This document shows, piece after piece, positions 20,718-33,667 of a stretch of DNA of 64,000 bases. Made by a program: the position numbers and the translations under genes. The DNA is from Acetobacteraceae bacterium. Its GTDB lineage: Bacteria > Pseudomonadota > Alphaproteobacteria > Acetobacterales > Acetobacteraceae. The stretch spans positions 1 through 64,000 of the forward strand of contig JAMXLO010000123.1 of NCBI GenBank assembly GCA_024280945.1. The letters run 5' to 3'. Under the pieces are notes generated by a model. That model was given only the letters and a program-made list of their open reading frames with translations, was not told the DNA's origin and searched no databases. Positions within the stretch are counted from its first letter, which is position 1, and each line of letters begins with the position of its first letter.

Positions 20718-22412
20718 TCAGATGGACTCGGCGCCGTAGTCACGACGCGCCGCCAGTGAAGTAACGTATCCGTCCAGCAGGTCGGCGGAAAGCCGGGCGC
20801 GATCCCGTCGCGAGGGTGACCCGTAACCGCCCGAGCCGGGCGCCTCGACCACAACCAGCGAGCCGGCCGGCGCGATGAAACCGCCCTTGCTGTTGAGTTT
20901 GCGCGCGTTGCCTTGCGGCGGGATCAGTTCCAGCCGCGCCGCGCCGCCGGATTTGCCATCCGCAAGGCCGAACGGCGGCGTCACTGTGCGCTCGCAACAG
21001 ACTGCGGCGTGAGCGTCGCGTTCCAGCACGCGCCAGATGCGGCGCACCCCGAGACCGCCGCGCCAGGTGCCGGCGCCGCCGCTGTCAGGCACCAGCGCGT
21101 ACTCTTCCACGCGCAAGGGGAAGCTCATCTCGATGATCTCGACCGGCGTGTTCATCATGTTCGAGACCGTCGAGGCGACGGCGTTGATGCCGTCCTTGAC
21201 CGGTCGCGCGCCGAAGCCGCCTTTCACTGACTCATAACTGACATAGCGTTCGTCGGTGCGATAGTCGACGCCACCGAACGTCACGACAGCCGAGGTGCCC
21301 TGCGATCCTGCCATCACGGTGCGCGGCGTGAAGGCGAACATCGCCGCCATCACCATGTCGGCGACGCGATGCGACATCTCATGGTTGGCATAGACGACGG
21401 GTGCGGGCAACTGCGCGTTCACCACCGAGCCGGATGGTGCGGTCACGGTGACCGGGCGCCAGCAACCCGAGTTCGGCGGGATCAGGCTTTTCGGGTCGGC
21501 GATCATCTTCAATGCGCAGAACACGCCGGATGCGGTGACGGTCAGCGGCGCATTCATCGGCCCTGGCACCTGGGGATCGGAGCCTGTGAAGTCGGCGGTG
21601 ATGGTATCGCCACGCTTGGTGATGCGCAGCTTCACGGTGAAGGTTTCGTCGTCGATCTCGCCCGGCGCGATGACGCCGTCGCCATCGAAGATGTCGGTGA
21701 ACTCGGCTTCGCCATCGGGCAACGCGCGCAGCGCGGCGCGCATCATGGTCTCGGAGTAGTCCTGCACCTCCTGCATGATGTCGAGCAGCGTCTCGGTGCC
21801 GTATTTCGCGGCCAGCTCCTGCAGGCGCGTCGCGGCACGCCAGTTCGCCGATACCTGCGCGCGCAGGTCGCCCAGGCGTTCGGTGGGCGTGCGCACGTTG
21901 GCGAAAATGATTGCCTCGATGGCCGGATCGGGTTTGCCGTCGCGATAGAGGCGGATGGGCGGCAGCCGCAGCCCCTCGCCATAGATCTCGGTCACTGCGC
22001 CATAGCTGCCGGGCGTGGCGCTGCCGATGTCCGGCCAGTGCGCGCGCACGCAGCCGAAGCCGAGCAGGCGATCGTCATGGAATGCGGGAGCGATGACGTT
22101 CACGTCCGGCAGGTGCGAACCGCCGTGGTATGGGTCGTTGTGGATGAAGACGTCGCCTGGTGCCACGTCGGGGAACGCCTGCACCACGGCGCGCACGGCA
22201 TCGGGCATCGAGCCGAGATGGATCGGCAGATCGGGGCCTTGCGCGACCATGTTGCCGTGCATGTCGAAGACGCCGCAGGAATAGTCGCCGGCGACCTTCA
22301 GCAACGGGGAATACGCGGTCTTCGCGAGAACGATCTTCATTTCCTCGGCGGCGCAGGTCAGCGCGTTCTTCACAACTTCGAAGCGAGCCGGGTCAGTCCT
22401 CAGCAAGGGCAT
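20718..22412 (-). CDS. hyuB: Hydantoinase B/oxoprolinase subunit (locus 1)
   Basis: The 564-residue protein belongs to the HyuB family. It pairs with HyuA in ATP-dependent N-methylhydantoinase, 5-oxoprolinase and acetone/acetophenone-carboxylase-like enzymes. The family hallmark HNDPYHGGSHLPDV is present, as are the N-terminal EMKIVLAKTAYSP block and the C-terminal SGGYGSP. CAGGAG stands 7 bases before the ATG. Its expected partner hyuA (23938-26010) is upstream on the same strand, but the two are separated by 1.5 kb carrying an opposite-strand protease gene, whereas the second locus (29732-33417) keeps the normal overlap. Confidence 0.93.
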   Translation of the reverse strand: MPLLRTDPARFEVVKNALTCAAEEMKIVLAKTAYSPLLKVAGDYSCGVFDMHGNMVAQGPDLPIHLGSMPDAVRAVVQAFPDVAPGDVFIHNDPYHGGSHLPDVNVIAPAFHDDRLLGFGCVRAHWPDIGSATPGSYGAVTEIYGEGLRLPPIRLYRDGKPDPAIEAIIFANVRTPTERLGDLRAQVSANWRAATRLQELAAKYGTETLLDIMQEVQDYSETMMRAALRALPDGEAEFTDIFDGDGVIAPGEIDDETFTVKLRITKRGDTITADFTGSDPQVPGPMNAPLTVTASGVFCALKMIADPKSLIPPNSGCWRPVTVTAPSGSVVNAQLPAPVVYANHEMSHRVADMVMAAMFAFTPRTVMAGSQGTSAVVTFGGVDYRTDERYVSYESVKGGFGARPVKDGINAVASTVSNMMNTPVEIIEMSFPLRVEEYALVPDSGGAGTWRGGLGVRRIWRVLERDAHAAVCCERTVTPPFGLADGKSGGAARLELIPPQGNARKLNSKGGFIAPAGSLVVVEAPGSGGYGSPSRRDRARLSADLLDGYVTSLAARRDYGAESI

Positions 22413-22427
22413 ATTCTGCTCCTGGGC

Positions 22428-23894
22428 GTGGAGTGGTGTGACAAAGCGATCCGGAGGGGAGGGCGAGTAGGAACCTCGCGGGATGCGCTAAAGGGCATTC
22501 TTCCGACTATCACTCTGGTAAGCCAGACGAACTATCGCGTTCGCCAGTATATTGTCTTTGACGCAGAACGTCTGCTCGCTCGCCCGGTGAGAACCTTCTT
22601 TGAGGCGGATATTGTAGAGCAGGCACTGAAAGCTGTTCTTGACCCGGGTCTTTCCTTTTCGGTTGAGAGCCTGCCGACTGCGCGCTTCGTGCCCTATGAG
22701 AGCATAGAGTTACCATTCATCCCCCAACGCGTTGCCGTGTTGGTGTCGTCTGGTGAGACTGAAGCAGTTGCCGAGAGAGCCGCGCTCGACGTGCGCAAGT
22801 CCGTCGAAGACCTGATCGACAGGGAAGGCAAACAGCGCGTTCTGGGCATCGGCGCCGATGTTCCTATCGTGCCGGCCGACTTCAGTTGCCAGCATATGAT
22901 GGACGTCGATGTGTTCGGCACCAGGGCCGATGCTCATCGGGTGACCAAGATCGATCAGCTTCCCGCCAGCTTCAGTGGTCTTACCGGGGCAGGCGTGAAT
23001 GTGGTGATCATTGATTCAGGTCTGGACGTGGCTCTCGTCCCCGCCGGTCAATGGGGCGGCGGCTGGCAACCACTGGCAACCAGTTCGCTTCCGGCTGGTC
23101 CGGTTCCGGGGACAACCACCGGCAAGGACGCCACGCACGGCTCGATGATTTTACAGAACATTCTGGCCGTTGCTCCGCTGGCCCGGATCTGGGACGTGCC
23201 GTTGATACAACCGCCGCGCATCAACGATATCACCGCTTTTCTTGCTCAGGCGGAGGGAACATTCCAGAAGATGATCGCTGACATCGCGAGCATGCCCGGG
23301 CAGCAATGGGTATTCATGAATGCCTGGGCGATCTTTGATCGCCGTTCGGAAGTGCCGCCGGGCGATTACACGGAAAACAATCCGACCGGTGGCGGCAATC
23401 ATCTGTTCATTGACCTTATCGAATCCCTCGCAGCGAAGAACTTCGATATGGTCTTCTGCGCCGGTAATTGCGGCGGTGTCTGCCCTGACGGGCGATGTGG
23501 TCCTAACGATTTCGGCCCTGGGCGGGGTATCTGGGGTGCCAATGCACATGCAAAAGTGCTGACCGTCGGTGCGACACGGACGCACGGCGCCTGGATGGGC
23601 TACTCCTCGGAGGGACCACTGCTTGGGACCAAGCTGGCAAATGACAAGCCTGATATCTGCGCACCCAGCCAGTATACCGAAACAGGCGGGCCAGTGCCGG
23701 CGAATATAGGAACGTCTGCGTCTGCGGCGCTTGCCTGCGGCGTGGTTACGGCGTTCCGAAGCAGATGGCCACAGAGCATGGTACCACCCTCGCAAGTGAT
23801 CTGGGCGCTGCAAACAGGCGCGGGTCCGGTCTGGACCTCCAGGCTGGGGCATGGAGTTCTGAACGCTCGAGCCGCGGCGGGGGCATTGCCTTGA
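22428..23894 (+). CDS. Subtilisin-like (S8) serine protease, inserted between hyuA and hyuB
   Basis: The product has about 488 residues. The S8 catalytic triad is intact: Asp196 in VVIIDSGLD, His237 in DATHGSM and Ser430 in NIGTSASAALA, with the oxyanion Asn347 in FCAGNCGG. An N-terminal region of about 180 residues with no signal peptide precedes the protease domain and may be a prodomain or recognition part. A Cys-rich loop (CGGVCPDGRC) is notable. The start is uncertain: GTG 22428 overlaps the hyuB leader, while the strong GGAGGGGAGGG at about 22455 has no ATG/GTG/TTG suitably placed; GTG 22587 is an alternative. Codon choice looks less GC-biased than in its neighbours, hinting at recent transfer. 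Confidence 0.85.
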   Translation: MEWCDKAIRRGGRVGTSRDALKGILPTITLVSQTNYRVRQYIVFDAERLLARPVRTFFEADIVEQALKAVLDPGLSFSVESLPTARFVPYESIELPFIPQRVAVLVSSGETEAVAERAALDVRKSVEDLIDREGKQRVLGIGADVPIVPADFSCQHMMDVDVFGTRADAHRVTKIDQLPASFSGLTGAGVNVVIIDSGLDVALVPAGQWGGGWQPLATSSLPAGPVPGTTTGKDATHGSMILQNILAVAPLARIWDVPLIQPPRINDITAFLAQAEGTFQKMIADIASMPGQQWVFMNAWAIFDRRSEVPPGDYTENNPTGGGNHLFIDLIESLAAKNFDMVFCAGNCGGVCPDGRCGPNDFGPGRGIWGANAHAKVLTVGATRTHGAWMGYSSEGPLLGTKLANDKPDICAPSQYTETGGPVPANIGTSASAALACGVVTAFRSRWPQSMVPPSQVIWALQTGAGPVWTSRLGHGVLNARAAAGALP

Positions 23895-23937
23895 GGCAAT
23901 GGCAACCGCGCTTTGCCCGATGCCATGATTTGCCGCC

Positions 23938-26010
23938 TCATGCGCGTGTCAGCCGAATGTAACCAGGATCCAGCACCTGCGCCTGCCATCCCGGCGGTAC
24001 CACCACTGTCGAGTCCATCGCCTCGACGATCGCCGGGCCGGCGATCCCAGTGCCGGATAGCAGGCCTTCGCGCCAATGCACCGGCGTTGGCACCATTCCC
24101 GCATCGGTGAACCAAACTTCGCGCATTGTTTCGCGTGCACGCGCCGCATCGCCGCGTTGCGCCAGCGGCACATCCGGCAGTCGTCCGAGTGCCGTCAGTC
24201 GTAGGTTGACCAACTGCACGCGCTCTGAGCGATTGGCATGACCATAGGTCTGCTCGTGCCTGACGTGAAAAACCTCGGCCAGTTCATCCAGGGATGCACC
24301 TGTGATCGCGCCATCGGCGATCGGTACGGTGAGCTCGTAGGCCTGTCGGCGATAGCGCACATCGGCCAGGCGGAGCAGCGCCTGCCGGTCCGCTGGCACG
24401 CGCGCGGCGCGCAGCATCTCGCGTCCTGCCTGCTCCATGGCGGCGATCACATCGGCAACCCTGGCGGGATCGATCGTCGCGAGATCGGCGTACAGCGTGC
24501 GAGAGTAATCGCGCTTGAGGTCGCTCGCGACGAGACCGAGCGCGGAGAAAGCGCCGGGTGAGGGCGGCACGATTACTTCCGCGATGTGCAATTCCTCCGC
24601 CAGCGCCACCGCGTGTACTGGACCAGCGCCGCCGAACGCGATGAGGCTGAATTCCTGCGGGTCGTAGCCGCGCTCGATCGACACGATGCGGAGCGCCTGC
24701 GCCATGTTGCTGTTGACCACTTCGATGATGCGCGCGGCGGCTTCTGGTACGGTCAGGCCGAGTGGGCGGGCGATGGCCGTATCGATCGCGCGCTCTGCGG
24801 CGGCGAGGTCAAGGCGCAGATTGCCGCCCAGCAATGCTTCGCGATCCAGATAACCGAGCACGATATCGGCGTCGGTGACCGTAGGCAGCGTGCCACCGGC
24901 GGCGTAAGCGGCGGGGCCTGGCGTGGCGCCGCCGCTTTGCGGGCCGACCTTCAGCGCGCCGCCTGGATCGATCCAGGCGATCGAGCCACCGCCCGCACTG
25001 ACCTCTGCCAGATCGATCACCGGCACGCGGATCGGATGCCCGGTGCCGTGCATCCAGCGGTTGGCGTGGCCGGCGCCGCCGACCTCATACTCCGCCGTCA
25101 CCGAGACTTCGCCATTGGCGATGACGCTGGCCTTCGCGGTCGTGCCGCCCATGTCGAACGAGATCAGGTTCGGACGCGCTAACTGCCGACCCGCCAACGC
25201 TGCCGCGATGACGCCGGCTGCGGGACCGGATTCGACTGCCATTGCCGGCATACGCAGTCCTTCGGCGATGTCGAACACGCCGCCAGACGAGCCCATGATG
25301 TGCAATTGCGGAAGTCCGAGACCGGAGACCGCGGTTTGCAGCCGGTCGAGATACGAGGCCAATACCGGCCCAACCACTGCGCACACCGCTGTGGTACTGG
25401 CGCGTTCGAATTCGCGGATCTCCGGCAGCACTTCGGATGACAGATAGATGCCCACGTCGGGCAAAGCCGCGCGCAGCGCTGCGCCGACACGCCGTTCGTG
25501 CGCGTCATTCAGGAACGAGAACAGGAATGACACGGCGACCGTCTGCAATTCCGCATCGCGGATGGCCTCGATCAACGCCGGCAGTTCGTCCTCGGCCAGT
25601 GGCGTCACCACCTCGCCCTGTGCGTCGATGCGTTCGGTGATCTCGAAGCGCCAACGCCGTGGTACCAGCACGGCGGGAGCGTCCTGCAACAGATCATACA
25701 GGTCTGCGCGTGATGAGCGGCGCAGCTCCAGCAGATCGCGCATACCGCGCGTTGCAACGAATCCCGCGCGCGCTCCCTTGTTCTCCAGCAGCGCATTGGT
25801 CACCACCGTGGTCGCGTGCGCCAACAGCGAGACATCGGCTGGTTCTATGCGATTGCTGTCGAGTGCCTGGCGGATGCCGTCGATCACCGCCTGGCCGAAG
25901 TCGTGCGGCGTGGTTGGCAGCTTGGCAATGGCGATGCGGCCGGTGTCTTCCTCCACCAGGGCGACATCAGTGAAGGTGCCGCCGATGTCGATGCCGATCC
26001 GCCATGCCAT
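23938..26010 (-). CDS. hyuA: Hydantoinase A/oxoprolinase subunit (locus 1)
   Basis: The 690-residue ATP-binding subunit of the HyuA family has the N-terminal IGIDIGGTFTDVAL phosphate loop and the central LISFDMGGTTAKAS block of the ASKHA fold. It phosphorylates the lactam/hydantoin carbonyl in concert with HyuB. The divergent start lies 41 bases from the MFS gene (26052), suggesting a shared control region. The product could open hydantoins, oxoproline or similar amides; the substrate is not defined. Its natural downstream partner hyuB is displaced by the protease gene. Confidence 0.93.
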   Translation of the reverse strand: MAWRIGIDIGGTFTDVALVEEDTGRIAIAKLPTTPHDFGQAVIDGIRQALDSNRIEPADVSLLAHATTVVTNALLENKGARAGFVATRGMRDLLELRRSSRADLYDLLQDAPAVLVPRRWRFEITERIDAQGEVVTPLAEDELPALIEAIRDAELQTVAVSFLFSFLNDAHERRVGAALRAALPDVGIYLSSEVLPEIREFERASTTAVCAVVGPVLASYLDRLQTAVSGLGLPQLHIMGSSGGVFDIAEGLRMPAMAVESGPAAGVIAAALAGRQLARPNLISFDMGGTTAKASVIANGEVSVTAEYEVGGAGHANRWMHGTGHPIRVPVIDLAEVSAGGGSIAWIDPGGALKVGPQSGGATPGPAAYAAGGTLPTVTDADIVLGYLDREALLGGNLRLDLAAAERAIDTAIARPLGLTVPEAAARIIEVVNSNMAQALRIVSIERGYDPQEFSLIAFGGAGPVHAVALAEELHIAEVIVPPSPGAFSALGLVASDLKRDYSRTLYADLATIDPARVADVIAAMEQAGREMLRAARVPADRQALLRLADVRYRRQAYELTVPIADGAITGASLDELAEVFHVRHEQTYGHANRSERVQLVNLRLTALGRLPDVPLAQRGDAARARETMREVWFTDAGMVPTPVHWREGLLSGTGIAGPAIVEAMDSTVVVPPGWQAQVLDPGYIRLTRA

Positions 26011-29731: not shown

Positions 29732-31396
29732 TCAACTCTTTGCCCGTCCTAGGGCAGGAACCTTGCCACTGCGCAAATCTGCCGTGACAGCCGCCGGGTC
29801 GCGTTCCGCCGGGTCGCCGTAACCGCCACCACCGCCGGTCTCGATGCGCACGGTTTCGCCGGCGGCCAGGACGATGCTGGCGGTCTTGGAGGAGAGCTCT
29901 TCCTCGCGATCGGTGCCGAAATTGCGGATCAGGCGCGCGGTGCGCCCCGGCTTGCCGCCGGCCAGGCCCGGCGCGCCCAGCAAGTGGCCATCGGAGCGGA
30001 CCGAGAAAATGACGCCGTCGCGCACCGCCCTGATCTGCCGCGCAATCCCCAGGCCGCCGCGATGCCGGCCGGCACCGCCGGAACCCGGCACCAGGGCGTA
30101 TTCGTCCACCAGCAGTGCATATTCGTTCTCCAATGCCTCTGTCGGCAGGTTGGAGGTGTTCGTCAGGTGCACGTGGATTGCTTCCATGCCGTCGGCATCC
30201 GAACGTGCGCCCATGCCGCCGCCGATGGTTTCAAGGTAAACGAAACTGCCGTCACCGGTCCGGCGCGGCCCGGAGAAGATGATCGCCGGCACGCTGTCGT
30301 GCGAGGCCGCCATCGCGCGGTCCGGTGGCAGCAGTTCCGCGAATGCGCCGAACAACGCGCGAGCGACCTTGTTGCAGGTGATGCTGCGCGCACCGACCGC
30401 GGCAGGGAACTGTGGGTCGACCAGCGTCCCCGGCTCGGTACGAATCTCGATGCAGTCGAACATGCCGCTGTTCGGCAGCAGCTCGGGGTCGAGCAACGTC
30501 TTCACCGTGTAATAGACCGTGGCACGCAACGCACTTTCCGGAACATTGAAGGCGCCGCGTGTCGCTGGAGCGGTGCCGGTGAAATCCGTGGTGAGTGTAT
30601 CGTTGTGTACGGTCACGGTGGCACGGATCGGAACAGGGTCGCCGTCGATCCCATCGTCGTCGAGATAGGCGGTGAAGCTCGACTGCCCGTCGGCCATGGC
30701 CCGCACACGATTGCGCAATCTCCGCGCGGTGTAGGCGAGCAGATCATCGGTCGCCTCGGTGACCGCGGCGAGCCCCGTGCGGTCGACCAGTTCCCGCATC
30801 AGCGTCACGCCACGCGCATTTGCGGCAACCTGCACCTTCAGATCGAGGGAACGCTCATCCGGATCGCGCGAGTTATGCGCGATCAGCGCCAGCAGGTCTT
30901 CGTCCAGTTCGCCGCCGCGTACCAGGCGGATCACCGGCAGGCGCAGACCTTCCTCGAACACTGAACGGGCACGTCCGGAAATCGATCCGGGCACAGGGCC
31001 GCCGACGTCCGAATGATGTCCGACATTGGCGGCAAATGCGCGCACTGTGCCATCGATGAAGACTGGTGTGACAATCGATATGTCCGGCATGTGCGTGCCG
31101 CCGGCCAGATACGGGTCGTTCAGCACGAACGCGTCTCCGTCGCACATCCGGTCCGTGGCGTAGCGCGCGAGCACCGCCTGTACGCTGCCCAGCAAGGAGC
31201 CGAGATGCAGCGGGATGTGCGATGCCTGGGCAATCAGCCGGCCATGCGAGTCGAACAGGCCGACCGAGCAATCCTTGCGTTCCTTGATGTTGGTGGAGAA
31301 CGACGAGCGGATCAGCGTGCTGCCCATGTCTTCGGTGATGGAGAGCAGGCGGTTGCTGAACACTTCCATCGCGATGGGATCGACGAGGCGACTCAT
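29732..31396 (-). CDS. hyuB: Hydantoinase B/oxoprolinase subunit (locus 2)
   Basis: This is a second HyuB-family protein of 554 residues. The LNDPYLAGGTHMPD motif corresponds to the metal-binding hallmark of the family, and the C-terminal glycine-rich GGGGGYGDP is present. It overlaps the upstream hyuA stop by four bases (ATGA), the normal coupled arrangement. It is clearly divergent from the HyuB at 20718-22412, so the two loci probably serve different substrates rather than being a recent duplication. Confidence 0.93.
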   Translation of the reverse strand: MSRLVDPIAMEVFSNRLLSITEDMGSTLIRSSFSTNIKERKDCSVGLFDSHGRLIAQASHIPLHLGSLLGSVQAVLARYATDRMCDGDAFVLNDPYLAGGTHMPDISIVTPVFIDGTVRAFAANVGHHSDVGGPVPGSISGRARSVFEEGLRLPVIRLVRGGELDEDLLALIAHNSRDPDERSLDLKVQVAANARGVTLMRELVDRTGLAAVTEATDDLLAYTARRLRNRVRAMADGQSSFTAYLDDDGIDGDPVPIRATVTVHNDTLTTDFTGTAPATRGAFNVPESALRATVYYTVKTLLDPELLPNSGMFDCIEIRTEPGTLVDPQFPAAVGARSITCNKVARALFGAFAELLPPDRAMAASHDSVPAIIFSGPRRTGDGSFVYLETIGGGMGARSDADGMEAIHVHLTNTSNLPTEALENEYALLVDEYALVPGSGGAGRHRGGLGIARQIRAVRDGVIFSVRSDGHLLGAPGLAGGKPGRTARLIRNFGTDREEELSSKTASIVLAAGETVRIETGGGGGYGDPAERDPAAVTADLRSGKVPALGRAKS

Positions 31397-33417
31397 TGCG
31401 CGAGTTCCAGCAAGAGGTTGCCGAAGTCGTCGACGCGCAAGCCCCAGTCGGGTGGCACGAGTGTCGTGGCACTCATCTCGTCGATCACGGCGGGCCCGGT
31501 GAGTTGCGTGCCGACGGCGAGACCGGCGCGGTCGAAGACCGGCGTGGCGGCCCAGCCGTCATCGAAACGGACCTGGCGTTCCGCCTTCGGTTGCGGAGCG
31601 CCGGCGACAGCGCTGAACACCGTTCTCGGGCGGTCGATCAATCCAATCGCTTTGAGGCGGCAGTTCACCACCTCGATCGTTCGGTCAGGTATATCGTAAT
31701 CATATTCGCGCCGATGTGCCTCCGCGAAGGCTCGGAGGAATCCGGCGTATGCCATATCCGCCAACCGCACCTGCACCTCATGGTTTTGCCCCTTGTAGCG
31801 GGCTTCGATCACATGGATGAACCGCCGCCGATCAGCCACGACCTGTTCGCTGTCCAGCCAACTGTTCGCGTCTGTCCGCATCGTGCTGAAGCGCTGTACG
31901 ATACTGGGCCAGAGCCGATCCTCCGCATCGGTGATTTCGCTGCGCACCAGGTCAAGGCTCAAGTCGGACAACAGGATACCACGCGCGCACATCGTGCCGG
32001 GCTCTACGGGCACCAGCGCGCGCCGAATGCCGCATTCCGCTGCTACAGCGACGGCGTGCAGTGGGCCGGCACCGCCATATGGGAACAGCACGAACTCGCG
32101 CACATCGTGACCCTTCTCGGTGGACACGGAACGAATTGCGCGACTCATGTTCGCGGCGGCAATGCGAATGATGCCGAGTGCCGCCTGTTCGACCGATAGC
32201 CCCATCGGCGTGGCAATTCTCTCGGCTATCGCGTGTCGCGCCGCAGCGGCATCGATCGGCATACGGCCGCCCAATAGCGCCGTCGGGTCGAGCCGCTGCA
32301 GGACGATGTTGGCATCTGTCAGCGTCGGCTCGTTGCCGCCCTTGCCATACGCGACCGGTCCCGGGTCGGCACCTGCGCTGCGTGGCCCGACCTTCAGCGC
32401 GCCAGCATCGTCCAGCCAGGCGATGGAGCCGCCGCCGGCGCCGATCACATGGACGTCGACCATCGGCGAACGCACCGGATAATCGGCAATTGTCCTGCTC
32501 GAAGCGAAGGCCGGCACCCCTCGCTCGATCAGCGAGACGTCGGTGGACGTCCCGCCGGCGTCGAACGTGATCAGGTTGCTGTATCCCGCCTCGCGCGCCA
32601 CCTCGGCGGCGCCGACGACACCGGCCGCCGGACCCGAAAGGCAGCAGCGCACAGGGAAGGCGCGCACCGTTTCGACCGGCAGCAGGCCACCATTGGAATG
32701 GACGGTGTAGGGCTGCACGGTCAGGCCAAGCCCTGCCAGCCGGCCGAGGAACCGGTCCAGATAGCGCTCCATACGCGGGCCGATGGCGGCGTTGATGGCC
32801 GTGGTGGAGAAGCGCTCGAACTCGCGGAATTCCGGCAGCACGCCGGACGAGGTCGCAAGATATACATGCGGCAGACGCGTGCGAACGATCGCTGCCGCGC
32901 GACGCTCGTGAGCGTCGTTCAGATAGCTGTGCAGGAAACAGATGGCGATCGCCTGCACACCCTGCGCTGCGAGCGCATCGGCGGCTGCTGCGACCGCAGC
33001 CTCGTCCAGCGGTATCAGCACGTTGCCGCCGGCATCGATGCGTTCGGGCACTTCCAGCCGACATTCGCGCGGCACTAATGGCGCCGGCGTGCGCACGGTG
33101 TAGTCGTAGAGATGGGGCCGAACCTGCCGCCCGATCTCCAAGACGTCGCGAAAGCCGCTTGTGGTGATCAGCCCGGTGGGCGCGCCTCGGCGCTCGATCA
33201 CCATGTTGGTGGCCACGGTGGTGCCATGGCCGATGAAGCTGACTTCCGCCGGCTGTGCGTTCAGTTCGGCGAGCAGCGAGCGGAGGCCGGTCTCGATTGC
33301 CTCGGACGGGTCTGTCGGCGTAGACGGTACTTTGACGTGTCGCAGTTCGCCGATCGCGGTGTCGTGGAGAGTAAAGTCGGTGAATGTCCCGCCGACGTCG
33401 AAGCCAATACGATACAT
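31393..33417 (-). CDS. hyuA: Hydantoinase A/oxoprolinase subunit (locus 2)
   Basis: The 674-residue HyuA-family protein begins MYRIGFDVGGTFTDFTLHD, the ASKHA phosphate-binding strand, and carries LITFDAGGTSTDVSLI as the second block. It couples ATP hydrolysis to opening of a cyclic amide together with the overlapping HyuB. Upstream in-frame codons to 33612 are rejected because homology begins at the ATG at 33417 and the extension is Pro/Arg-rich. The 250-base gap to the divergent glycosyltransferase should hold the promoter; I see no other feature there. Confidence 0.92.
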   Translation of the reverse strand: MYRIGFDVGGTFTDFTLHDTAIGELRHVKVPSTPTDPSEAIETGLRSLLAELNAQPAEVSFIGHGTTVATNMVIERRGAPTGLITTSGFRDVLEIGRQVRPHLYDYTVRTPAPLVPRECRLEVPERIDAGGNVLIPLDEAAVAAAADALAAQGVQAIAICFLHSYLNDAHERRAAAIVRTRLPHVYLATSSGVLPEFREFERFSTTAINAAIGPRMERYLDRFLGRLAGLGLTVQPYTVHSNGGLLPVETVRAFPVRCCLSGPAAGVVGAAEVAREAGYSNLITFDAGGTSTDVSLIERGVPAFASSRTIADYPVRSPMVDVHVIGAGGGSIAWLDDAGALKVGPRSAGADPGPVAYGKGGNEPTLTDANIVLQRLDPTALLGGRMPIDAAAARHAIAERIATPMGLSVEQAALGIIRIAAANMSRAIRSVSTEKGHDVREFVLFPYGGAGPLHAVAVAAECGIRRALVPVEPGTMCARGILLSDLSLDLVRSEITDAEDRLWPSIVQRFSTMRTDANSWLDSEQVVADRRRFIHVIEARYKGQNHEVQVRLADMAYAGFLRAFAEAHRREYDYDIPDRTIEVVNCRLKAIGLIDRPRTVFSAVAGAPQPKAERQVRFDDGWAATPVFDRAGLAVGTQLTGPAVIDEMSATTLVPPDWGLRVDDFGNLLLELAQ

Positions 33418-33667
33418 GCCACGACTTTGCGGGCTGCGTGCGCGGCACTCAAGTCGGCGCGGTGGCCCGCGCAGAACAACGGCTGCACGCGCCGGGTCCC
33501 TGGCCCTGCGTCTCGCGGCACTCGGCGATACCGGGTATATTGGTATCGGCGTGCTGGGAGGCCTGGGAGGTCGCCGAACAGCCCGAGGCCGTTCAGGAGC
33601 GGTGAAGATCACGCACCGAACCGATGCGTAAGCGCCGCCTTAACCGCGGGTGTGCAGGCTGTCGGGC

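What the first reader, a model, noticed from the sequence alone, without database searches (positions are those of the whole stretch)
22428..23894. Subtilisin-like protease gene inserted antisense between hyuA and hyuB
hyuA (23938-26010) and hyuB (20718-22412) are on the minus strand and normally overlap or abut, as they do at 31393-31396. Here they are split by 1.5 kb carrying a plus-strand S8 protease with an intact triad and a codon choice that looks less GC-biased. The insertion leaves hyuB needing its own promoter, which would overlap the protease start. A protease placed as a divergent/convergent cargo in a metabolic operon suggests either recent transfer or a new functional pairing.
Basis: partly seen in the sequence, partly recalled or inferred. 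Interest (0 to 1): 0.65.

Follow-up and report, generated by a model that had tools for sequence, protein, structure and literature searches.

The report
Stray protease of a three-gene module
A lone subtilisin-type protease gene has dropped between two enzyme genes that are side by side in related bacteria, and its closest kin elsewhere sit in a three-gene set, not found in the papers searched, with a phosphatase that carries a strange short-peptide repeat.

Summary
An S8 (subtilase) gene lies on the plus strand at 22428-23894 between hyuA and hyuB, with its Asp/His/Ser triad intact. It is a derived insertion: in 5 of 5 close orthologues (66-85% identity) hyuB follows hyuA after -10 to 147 nt; here 1,525 nt intervene. 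No edge repeats or mobile genes were found.

A new pairing with hydantoinase genes is poorly supported: 2 of 86 relatives' loci have hyu genes within 8 kb. Instead, the window protein falls in a supported set of 27 alphaproteobacterial proteases; 26 of the 26 others lie near a TPR-regulator gene and 25 of 26 near a PAP2 (acid-phosphatase-like) gene, the exception on a 3.8-kb contig. The window copy has neither. The genome keeps complete S8 modules on contigs C7 and C152, and one with a G1 peptidase on C16. So this is a stray member of a module I found in no paper searched.

Its start codon is doubtful, so it may be functional or decaying.

The module is the more interesting result. Its peptidase is S8, G1 or apparently C1, largely by clade. 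Most of its PAP2 proteins begin with a tandem short-peptide repeat, perfect in amino acids but varied in codons. Proteolysis of that repeat is my boldest, untested reading.

The parts
22428..23894 (+). S8 subtilase gene, 488 codons from GTG 22428 to TGA; the true start may lie further downstream at a non-canonical codon
22428..22535 (+). codons 1-36: leader without support from relatives, pLDDT under 50, likely flanking DNA read in frame
22542..22859 (+). residues 39-144: strand-helix-strand-helix-strand N-terminal region, prodomain-like (inferred from order of elements, partly low confidence)
22905..23876 (+). residues 160-483: subtilisin-fold catalytic region
23013..23015 (+). catalytic Asp196
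   Evidence: invariant column
23136..23138 (+). catalytic His237
   Evidence: invariant column
23715..23717 (+). catalytic Ser430
   Evidence: invariant column
23460..23500 (+). family-typical AGNCG..CPD.RCG stretch (Cys348, Cys352, Cys357)
   Evidence: Cys348 and Cys357 invariant in 49 rows; sequence
22413..23937 (.). 1,525 nt between hyuB start and hyuA stop; -10 to 147 nt in 5 close orthologues
20718..22412 (-). hyuB (Hydantoinase_B)
23938..26010 (-). hyuA (Hydant_A_N, Hydantoinase_A)

Best explanation
The gene is a stray, probably still coding, member of a family of subtilases that in Alphaproteobacteria belongs to a three-gene module (TPR regulator, PAP2 acid-phosphatase-like protein, peptidase). 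It came to lie between hyuA and hyuB after this lineage split from its sampled relatives, without its partners. Mechanism: a subtilisin-fold protease with an N-terminal prodomain-like region that would be removed by self-cleavage (inferred); if made, it would act on proteins of the modules that remain elsewhere in the genome, or has no role left. It has no shown link to hydantoin or lactam breakdown. Shown: insertion, intact triad, family, absence of partners on the 64-kb window. Inferred: self-activation, intracellular site (no signal-peptide tool was run), action in trans, route of arrival.
For: Empty site in 5 of 5 close orthologues. Tree of 38 proteases: window inside a starred (100/99) set of 27, and with own paralogues L008, L009 and L017, L029, L021 at 93/94, below the star limit. 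Of the other 26 in that set, 26 have the TPR-regulator profile and 25 the PAP2 profile in the DNA held around them; the exception, L022, is a 3.8-kb contig (recounted). Neither profile hits the 64-kb window at E 0.01 and no PAP2 lies on its contig in a whole-genome search. The 6 other S8 matches in 100 relatives all lie in such modules. Subtilisin fold: profile against subtilisin BPN' 1e-22, AlphaFold2 mean pLDDT 79, Foldseek 1e-13 to a BPN'-derived peptiligase at 19% identity.
Against: The clade with own paralogues is not starred and the window end branch is long (0.94, median 0.51), so its closest kin is not certain. The TPR-regulator profile was not run on bases 64001-104993 of the contig. 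The weak start could mean a decaying relic, or a start that I misjudge. No expression data.
Confidence: 0.8

Rival explanations
1. Decaying relic: the gene lost its own start and ribosome-binding site when it landed and is no longer translated.
For: No in-frame ATG/GTG/TTG from 22431 to 22560, 16-28 extra residues before the catalytic Asp, first 36 residues disordered; long branch; no convincing promoter.
Against: About 450 codons of homologous frame without a stop, all triad residues and the Cys-rich stretch kept; neighbours of protein level divergence keep subtilisin fold.
Confidence: 0.3
2. Recent horizontal transfer of a single protease gene from an unsampled donor.
For: GC3 0.64 and CAI 0.50 below the neighbours; no relative above 48% identity; sparse in relatives (4 of 100 genomes, own included).
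Against: Paralogues in the same genome have nearly the same low values and are among the nearest in the tree; no mobile element or edge repeat found.
Confidence: 0.3
3. New functional pairing: the protease matures or turns over HyuA/HyuB.
For: Position between the two genes; 2 of 86 relatives' loci have hyu genes within 8 kb, one of them (L021) in the same weak clade as the window copy.
Against: 84 of 86 loci show none; in L021 a LysR-like gene lies between, the pair is intact and the protease has its module; hyu-like genes are many (11 matches at E 1e-100 in this genome), so near ones are expected now and then; 28 of 28 other hyuA loci do without.
Confidence: 0.08
4. Assembly or binning artefact: the protease was joined into the contig wrongly.
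For: The genome is in 156 contigs with 1.73% contamination; composition dips exactly at the gene.
Against: It lies inside a 105-kb contig with hyuA and hyuB complete on either side, and its kin are in the same genome and genus.
Confidence: 0.04

Closest known systems
Subtilase family S8 (Pfam PF00082; subtilisin BPN')
   Same: Fold, Asp-His-Ser order and motifs
   Different: About 19-20% identity over the fold; a Cys-rich AGNCG..CPD.RCG stretch; N-terminal region of its own
Mycosin, type VII secretion protease (NCBIfam TIGR03921)
   Same: Best NCBIfam hit, C-terminal half of the catalytic domain (33 bits)
   Different: Far below the family cut-off of 278.75 bits
Regulator-PAP2-peptidase module of Alphaproteobacteria (unnamed; described here)
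   Same: The protease family; 2 complete S8 modules in the same genome (C7, C152) and one with a G1 peptidase (C16)
   Different: The window copy has neither the TPR regulator nor the PAP2 gene
Class A acid phosphatases / PAP2 (for the module's second protein)
   Same: Profile hit to 7f18 at 1e-17, fold hit to 7f17 at 1.9e-6; K-x6-R, PSGH and R-x5-H-x3-D motifs (motif names recalled)
   Different: N-terminal tandem oligopeptide repeat; vanadium haloperoxidases score lower by fold (E 0.01 or more)
NTP-dependent conflict systems with cNMP cyclase, TIR and peptidase domains (PMC7159879, PMC8195603; passages seen)
   Same: Theme of cyclase, TIR and unrelated peptidases with TPR proteins
   Different: The word PAP2 occurs in neither paper's text; I did not look for their MoxR, vWA or VMAP parts in the modules

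Membership tests
S8 subtilase | Pfam gathering score | tested here: met
   30.7 bits against 21.8
S8 subtilase | Asp-His-Ser triad in order | tested here: met
   Asp196, His237, Ser430 invariant in 49 rows
S8 subtilase | subtilisin fold | tested here: met
   model pLDDT 79, Foldseek 1e-13
S8 subtilase | proteolytic activity | not testable with these tools
   needs an assay
Regulator-PAP2-peptidase module | protease belongs to the module's S8 clade | tested here: met
   starred set of 27
Regulator-PAP2-peptidase module | TPR regulator and PAP2 genes nearby | tested here: not met
   no hit on the 64-kb window; no PAP2 on the contig
Mycosin TIGR03921 | curated score | tested here: not met
   33 against 278.75 bits
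Anti-phage defence subtilase (PADLOC) | convincing match to a PADLOC model | tested here: inconclusive
   PDLC03014 subtilase E 0.0011, 16.6 bits
Mobile genetic element cargo | edge repeats, transposase or integrase beside it | tested here: not met
   none found; phage records no match

The most novel reading that the evidence does not exclude
The family of this protease marks an undescribed alphaproteobacterial system: a TPR regulator with an exchangeable N-terminal domain (nucleotide cyclase, winged helix/SARP, in one case TIR), a soluble acid-phosphatase-like PAP2 protein that displays a lineage-specific tandem oligopeptide array at its N-terminus, and one peptidase of three unrelated folds (S8, G1, C1). 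The peptidase recognises or cuts the array, which would explain why all units of an array stay identical as protein while their codons vary and why units differ between close relatives. The window gene is a peptidase that has escaped from such a system.
Probability: 0.3. Interest if true: 0.8.

Novelty: new variant of a known kind. Interest (0 to 1): 0.5.

Why it matters
As a lone gene the finding is modest: a protease copy that interrupts an operon in one genome. It matters because it led to a gene set with a clear and testable logic that I could not find in print (seven searches of an open-access library). The set joins a signalling or regulatory protein, a phosphatase and a protease. Its phosphatase starts with a repeat that selection seems to hold uniform at the protein level, which is unusual. 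If the protease cuts or reads that repeat, the lineage-specific arrays become a direct experimental handle on an unknown bacterial signalling or conflict system.

Tried and rejected
Hydantoinase-linked protease: rejected as main reading, see rivals; 2 of 86 loci with nearby hyu genes are reported as evidence the other way. Type VII secretion mycosin: below cut-off. Phage cargo: no match in phage records, weak PHROG hit only (E 0.032). Plasmid-borne close relatives: only 3 plasmid records matched, at 27-33% identity. First genome-contig scan with the single protein found nothing; the alignment A1 found 369 relatives, of which the tool kept the best 80.

Microsatellite explanation of the PAP2 repeats: rejected for the set counted, since adjacent units differ synonymously in 239 of 363 codon comparisons (zero nonsynonymous is by construction, as only perfect runs were taken). 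Free swapping of peptidases: not borne out; on the PAP2 tree the three classes need 3 changes, the least possible being 2. An idea that repeat type tracks peptidase type stays confounded by descent and I make no claim on it.

Eyeballed likeness of the hyuB leader to the tail of hyuA in L107 was not significant and is not used. Solved-structure search with the single protein gave nothing.

Full report
What is there. The window holds hyuB (20718-22412, minus), a plus-strand S8 protease frame ending at 23894, and hyuA (23938-26010, minus). Pfam supports all three. The protease has Asp196, His237 and Ser430, invariant in 49 aligned relatives. Its fold is that of subtilisin: a profile of the family finds subtilisin BPN' at 1e-22, and the AlphaFold2 model (mean pLDDT 79.1) matches a BPN'-derived enzyme at 1.1e-13 with 19% identity. 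Residues 39-144 form a strand-helix-strand-helix-strand region that looks like a subtilase prodomain; this is my reading of the element order, and parts have low confidence.

The start is weak. From GTG 22428 the protein is 488 residues long, but no ATG, GTG or TTG in frame follows up to 22560, and the catalytic Asp lies 16-28 residues further from the start than in L017, L008 and L009. The first 36 residues have pLDDT under 50. The native start may have been lost on insertion.

It is a derived insertion. hyuA orthologues with 66-85% identity in G001, G015, G025, G003 and G070 (loci L107-L111) have hyuB directly behind, with estimated gaps of 31, 147, 5, -10 and 26 nt. Of 28 other hyuA loci in all, 23 have hyuB directly behind, 3 look fused and 2 have their only hyuB hit upstream. 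G001 is of the same genus and has the empty site. Here 1,525 nt intervene. No direct or inverted repeat of 8 nt or more joins the edges (22396-22530 against 23881-23960), both edges occur once in the genome, and none of 9 neighbouring proteins is a transposase or integrase.

Codon use. GC3 is 0.64 and CAI 0.50, below 8 neighbours (the CAI reference was those 8 genes). The S8 paralogue on C7 is as low and that on C152 in between, so this does not by itself show recent transfer.

Relatives. In 100 genomes (own included) 4 have a match, 7 matches in all. A scan of GTDB contigs with alignment A1 found 369 relatives; the best 80 were kept. Of these, 22 are alphaproteobacterial (L017-L037, L077), 56 actinobacterial, 1 myxobacterial and 1 gammaproteobacterial. 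In a tree of 38 proteases the window copy lies in a starred set of 27 alphaproteobacterial proteins, and weakly (93/94) with its own paralogues L008 and L009 and with L017, L029 and L021. Highest identity is 45% over 360 columns; the first search gave 48% over part.

Their neighbours. Proteins beside the S8 genes are a TPR protein, mostly with an N-terminal class III nucleotide cyclase domain, and a PAP2 protein. Within the set of 27, all 26 others have the TPR-regulator profile and 25 the PAP2 profile in the DNA held; L022 is a 3.8-kb contig. The 58 non-alphaproteobacterial loci show neither at E 0.01, and the Sinorhizobium plasmid locus L014 shows only a distant TPR-regulator hit. The window shows neither on its 64 kb, and a whole-genome PAP2 search puts none on its contig. 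So the window protease is a stray. The genome has complete S8 modules on C7 and C152 and a third module with a G1 peptidase on C16.

hyu genes near relatives. As a check I searched 86 loci for hyuA/hyuB: 2 have them, L021 (34% identity, both genes) and L035 (hyuA only, at the contig end). In L021 the pair is intact and a LysR-like gene lies between it and the protease (LysR by eye). hyuA-like genes are frequent in such genomes (11 matches at 1e-100 in this one). This is weak evidence for a pairing and I report it as such.

The module beyond S8. A PAP2 profile (A2) hit 12 of 385 genomes of the class, 36 of 299 of the order and 6 of 398 of the phylum, listed hits there all in the same class. I examined 77 loci with home-made profiles: 46 have TPR regulator, PAP2 and S8; 16 have TPR regulator, PAP2 and a G1 (Pfam Peptidase_A4) protein; 13 have the first two only; L022 lacks PAP2 and L163 the regulator, both on short contig pieces. 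No locus had both S8 and G1. The loci were gathered by S8 or PAP2, so only the partners are independent evidence. Peptidase_A4 passed Pfam's cut-off in 6 of 6 proteins tested. Of the 13 remaining loci, 7 have a papain-like protein by a home-made profile, five of them being its source and L178 weak; Pfam's C1 cut-off was passed in 2 of them only, L181 and L186. Among 61 TPR proteins Pfam found a cyclase domain in 34, Trans_reg_C in 12, BTAD in 7 and TIR in 1; the TIR one is L164 by my reading of the sequence. On the PAP2 tree S8, G1 and C1 need 3 changes, the extra one being L189.

The repeat. Of 25 distinct PAP2 proteins first seen, 22 carry a perfect tandem repeat of 2-3 residues near the N-terminus; adjacent units use identical codons in 124 and synonymous ones in 239 of 363 comparisons. 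In 66 distinct loci, 55 have at least four units of 2-4 residues, against 6 of 1286 other stop-to-stop frames and 0 of 66 TPR proteins (the control took the first 130 residues of such frames, not of annotated genes, and some of the 6 are antisense to the repeat). L189 has a five-residue repeat and L179 a repeat seen; L013, L017 and L181 have none, L020, L146 and L176 are unclear. Sister proteins L032 and L027 carry different units throughout. The PAP2 core resembles soluble class A acid phosphatases.

Named examples. Of four plasmid regions read, three (Palleronia, Paracoccus, Rhizobium leguminosarum) have PAP2 followed by an S8 peptidase gene, and their PAP2 proteins carry NR, TAQ and NK repeats; the fourth (Bosea) has a PAP2 in two pieces without a peptidase in the stretch. 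Their S8 proteins are too distant for BLAST to join them to the window's. In R. leguminosarum a HEXXH peptide-modification protein and a ThiF protein follow.

Verdict. The protease is best read as a stray member of an apparently undescribed module. Seven paper searches of an open-access library found no description; of two related papers I saw only passages.

Noticed in passing
L008-L189 (module PAP2 genes), e.g. L027:5010-6044 and L032:4588-5619: N-terminal tandem oligopeptide repeats, uniform as protein, varied in codons, with units that differ between sister proteins.
   Followed up: partly
L136:7724-8581 (own contig C16): Module variant with a G1 (Peptidase_A4) protein in place of S8; 16 of 77 loci have it.
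   Followed up: yes
L164:8389-10509: TPR regulator with a TIR-like N-terminus where others have a cyclase.
   Followed up: no
L192 (R. leguminosarum pR132501): SARP regulator, PAP2 and S8 genes followed by a HEXXH putative peptide-modification protein and a ThiF protein, reminiscent of peptide natural-product clusters.
   Followed up: no
L193 (Bosea plasmid pNBC550): A PAP2 relative in two overlapping pieces without peptidase in the stretch: perhaps another stray module gene.
   Followed up: no
window 29732-33612: A second hyuAB-like pair with 4-nt overlap, 3.7 kb from the first.
   Followed up: no
L014:5482-7173 (Sinorhizobium chiapasense plasmid): A distant S8 relative whose own N-terminus carries long imperfect repeats.
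   Followed up: no
L015 and L016 (Nonomuraea, Streptomyces): Actinobacterial relatives followed by a short gene of 84-89 residues on the same strand, without Pfam hit in the one tested.
   Followed up: no
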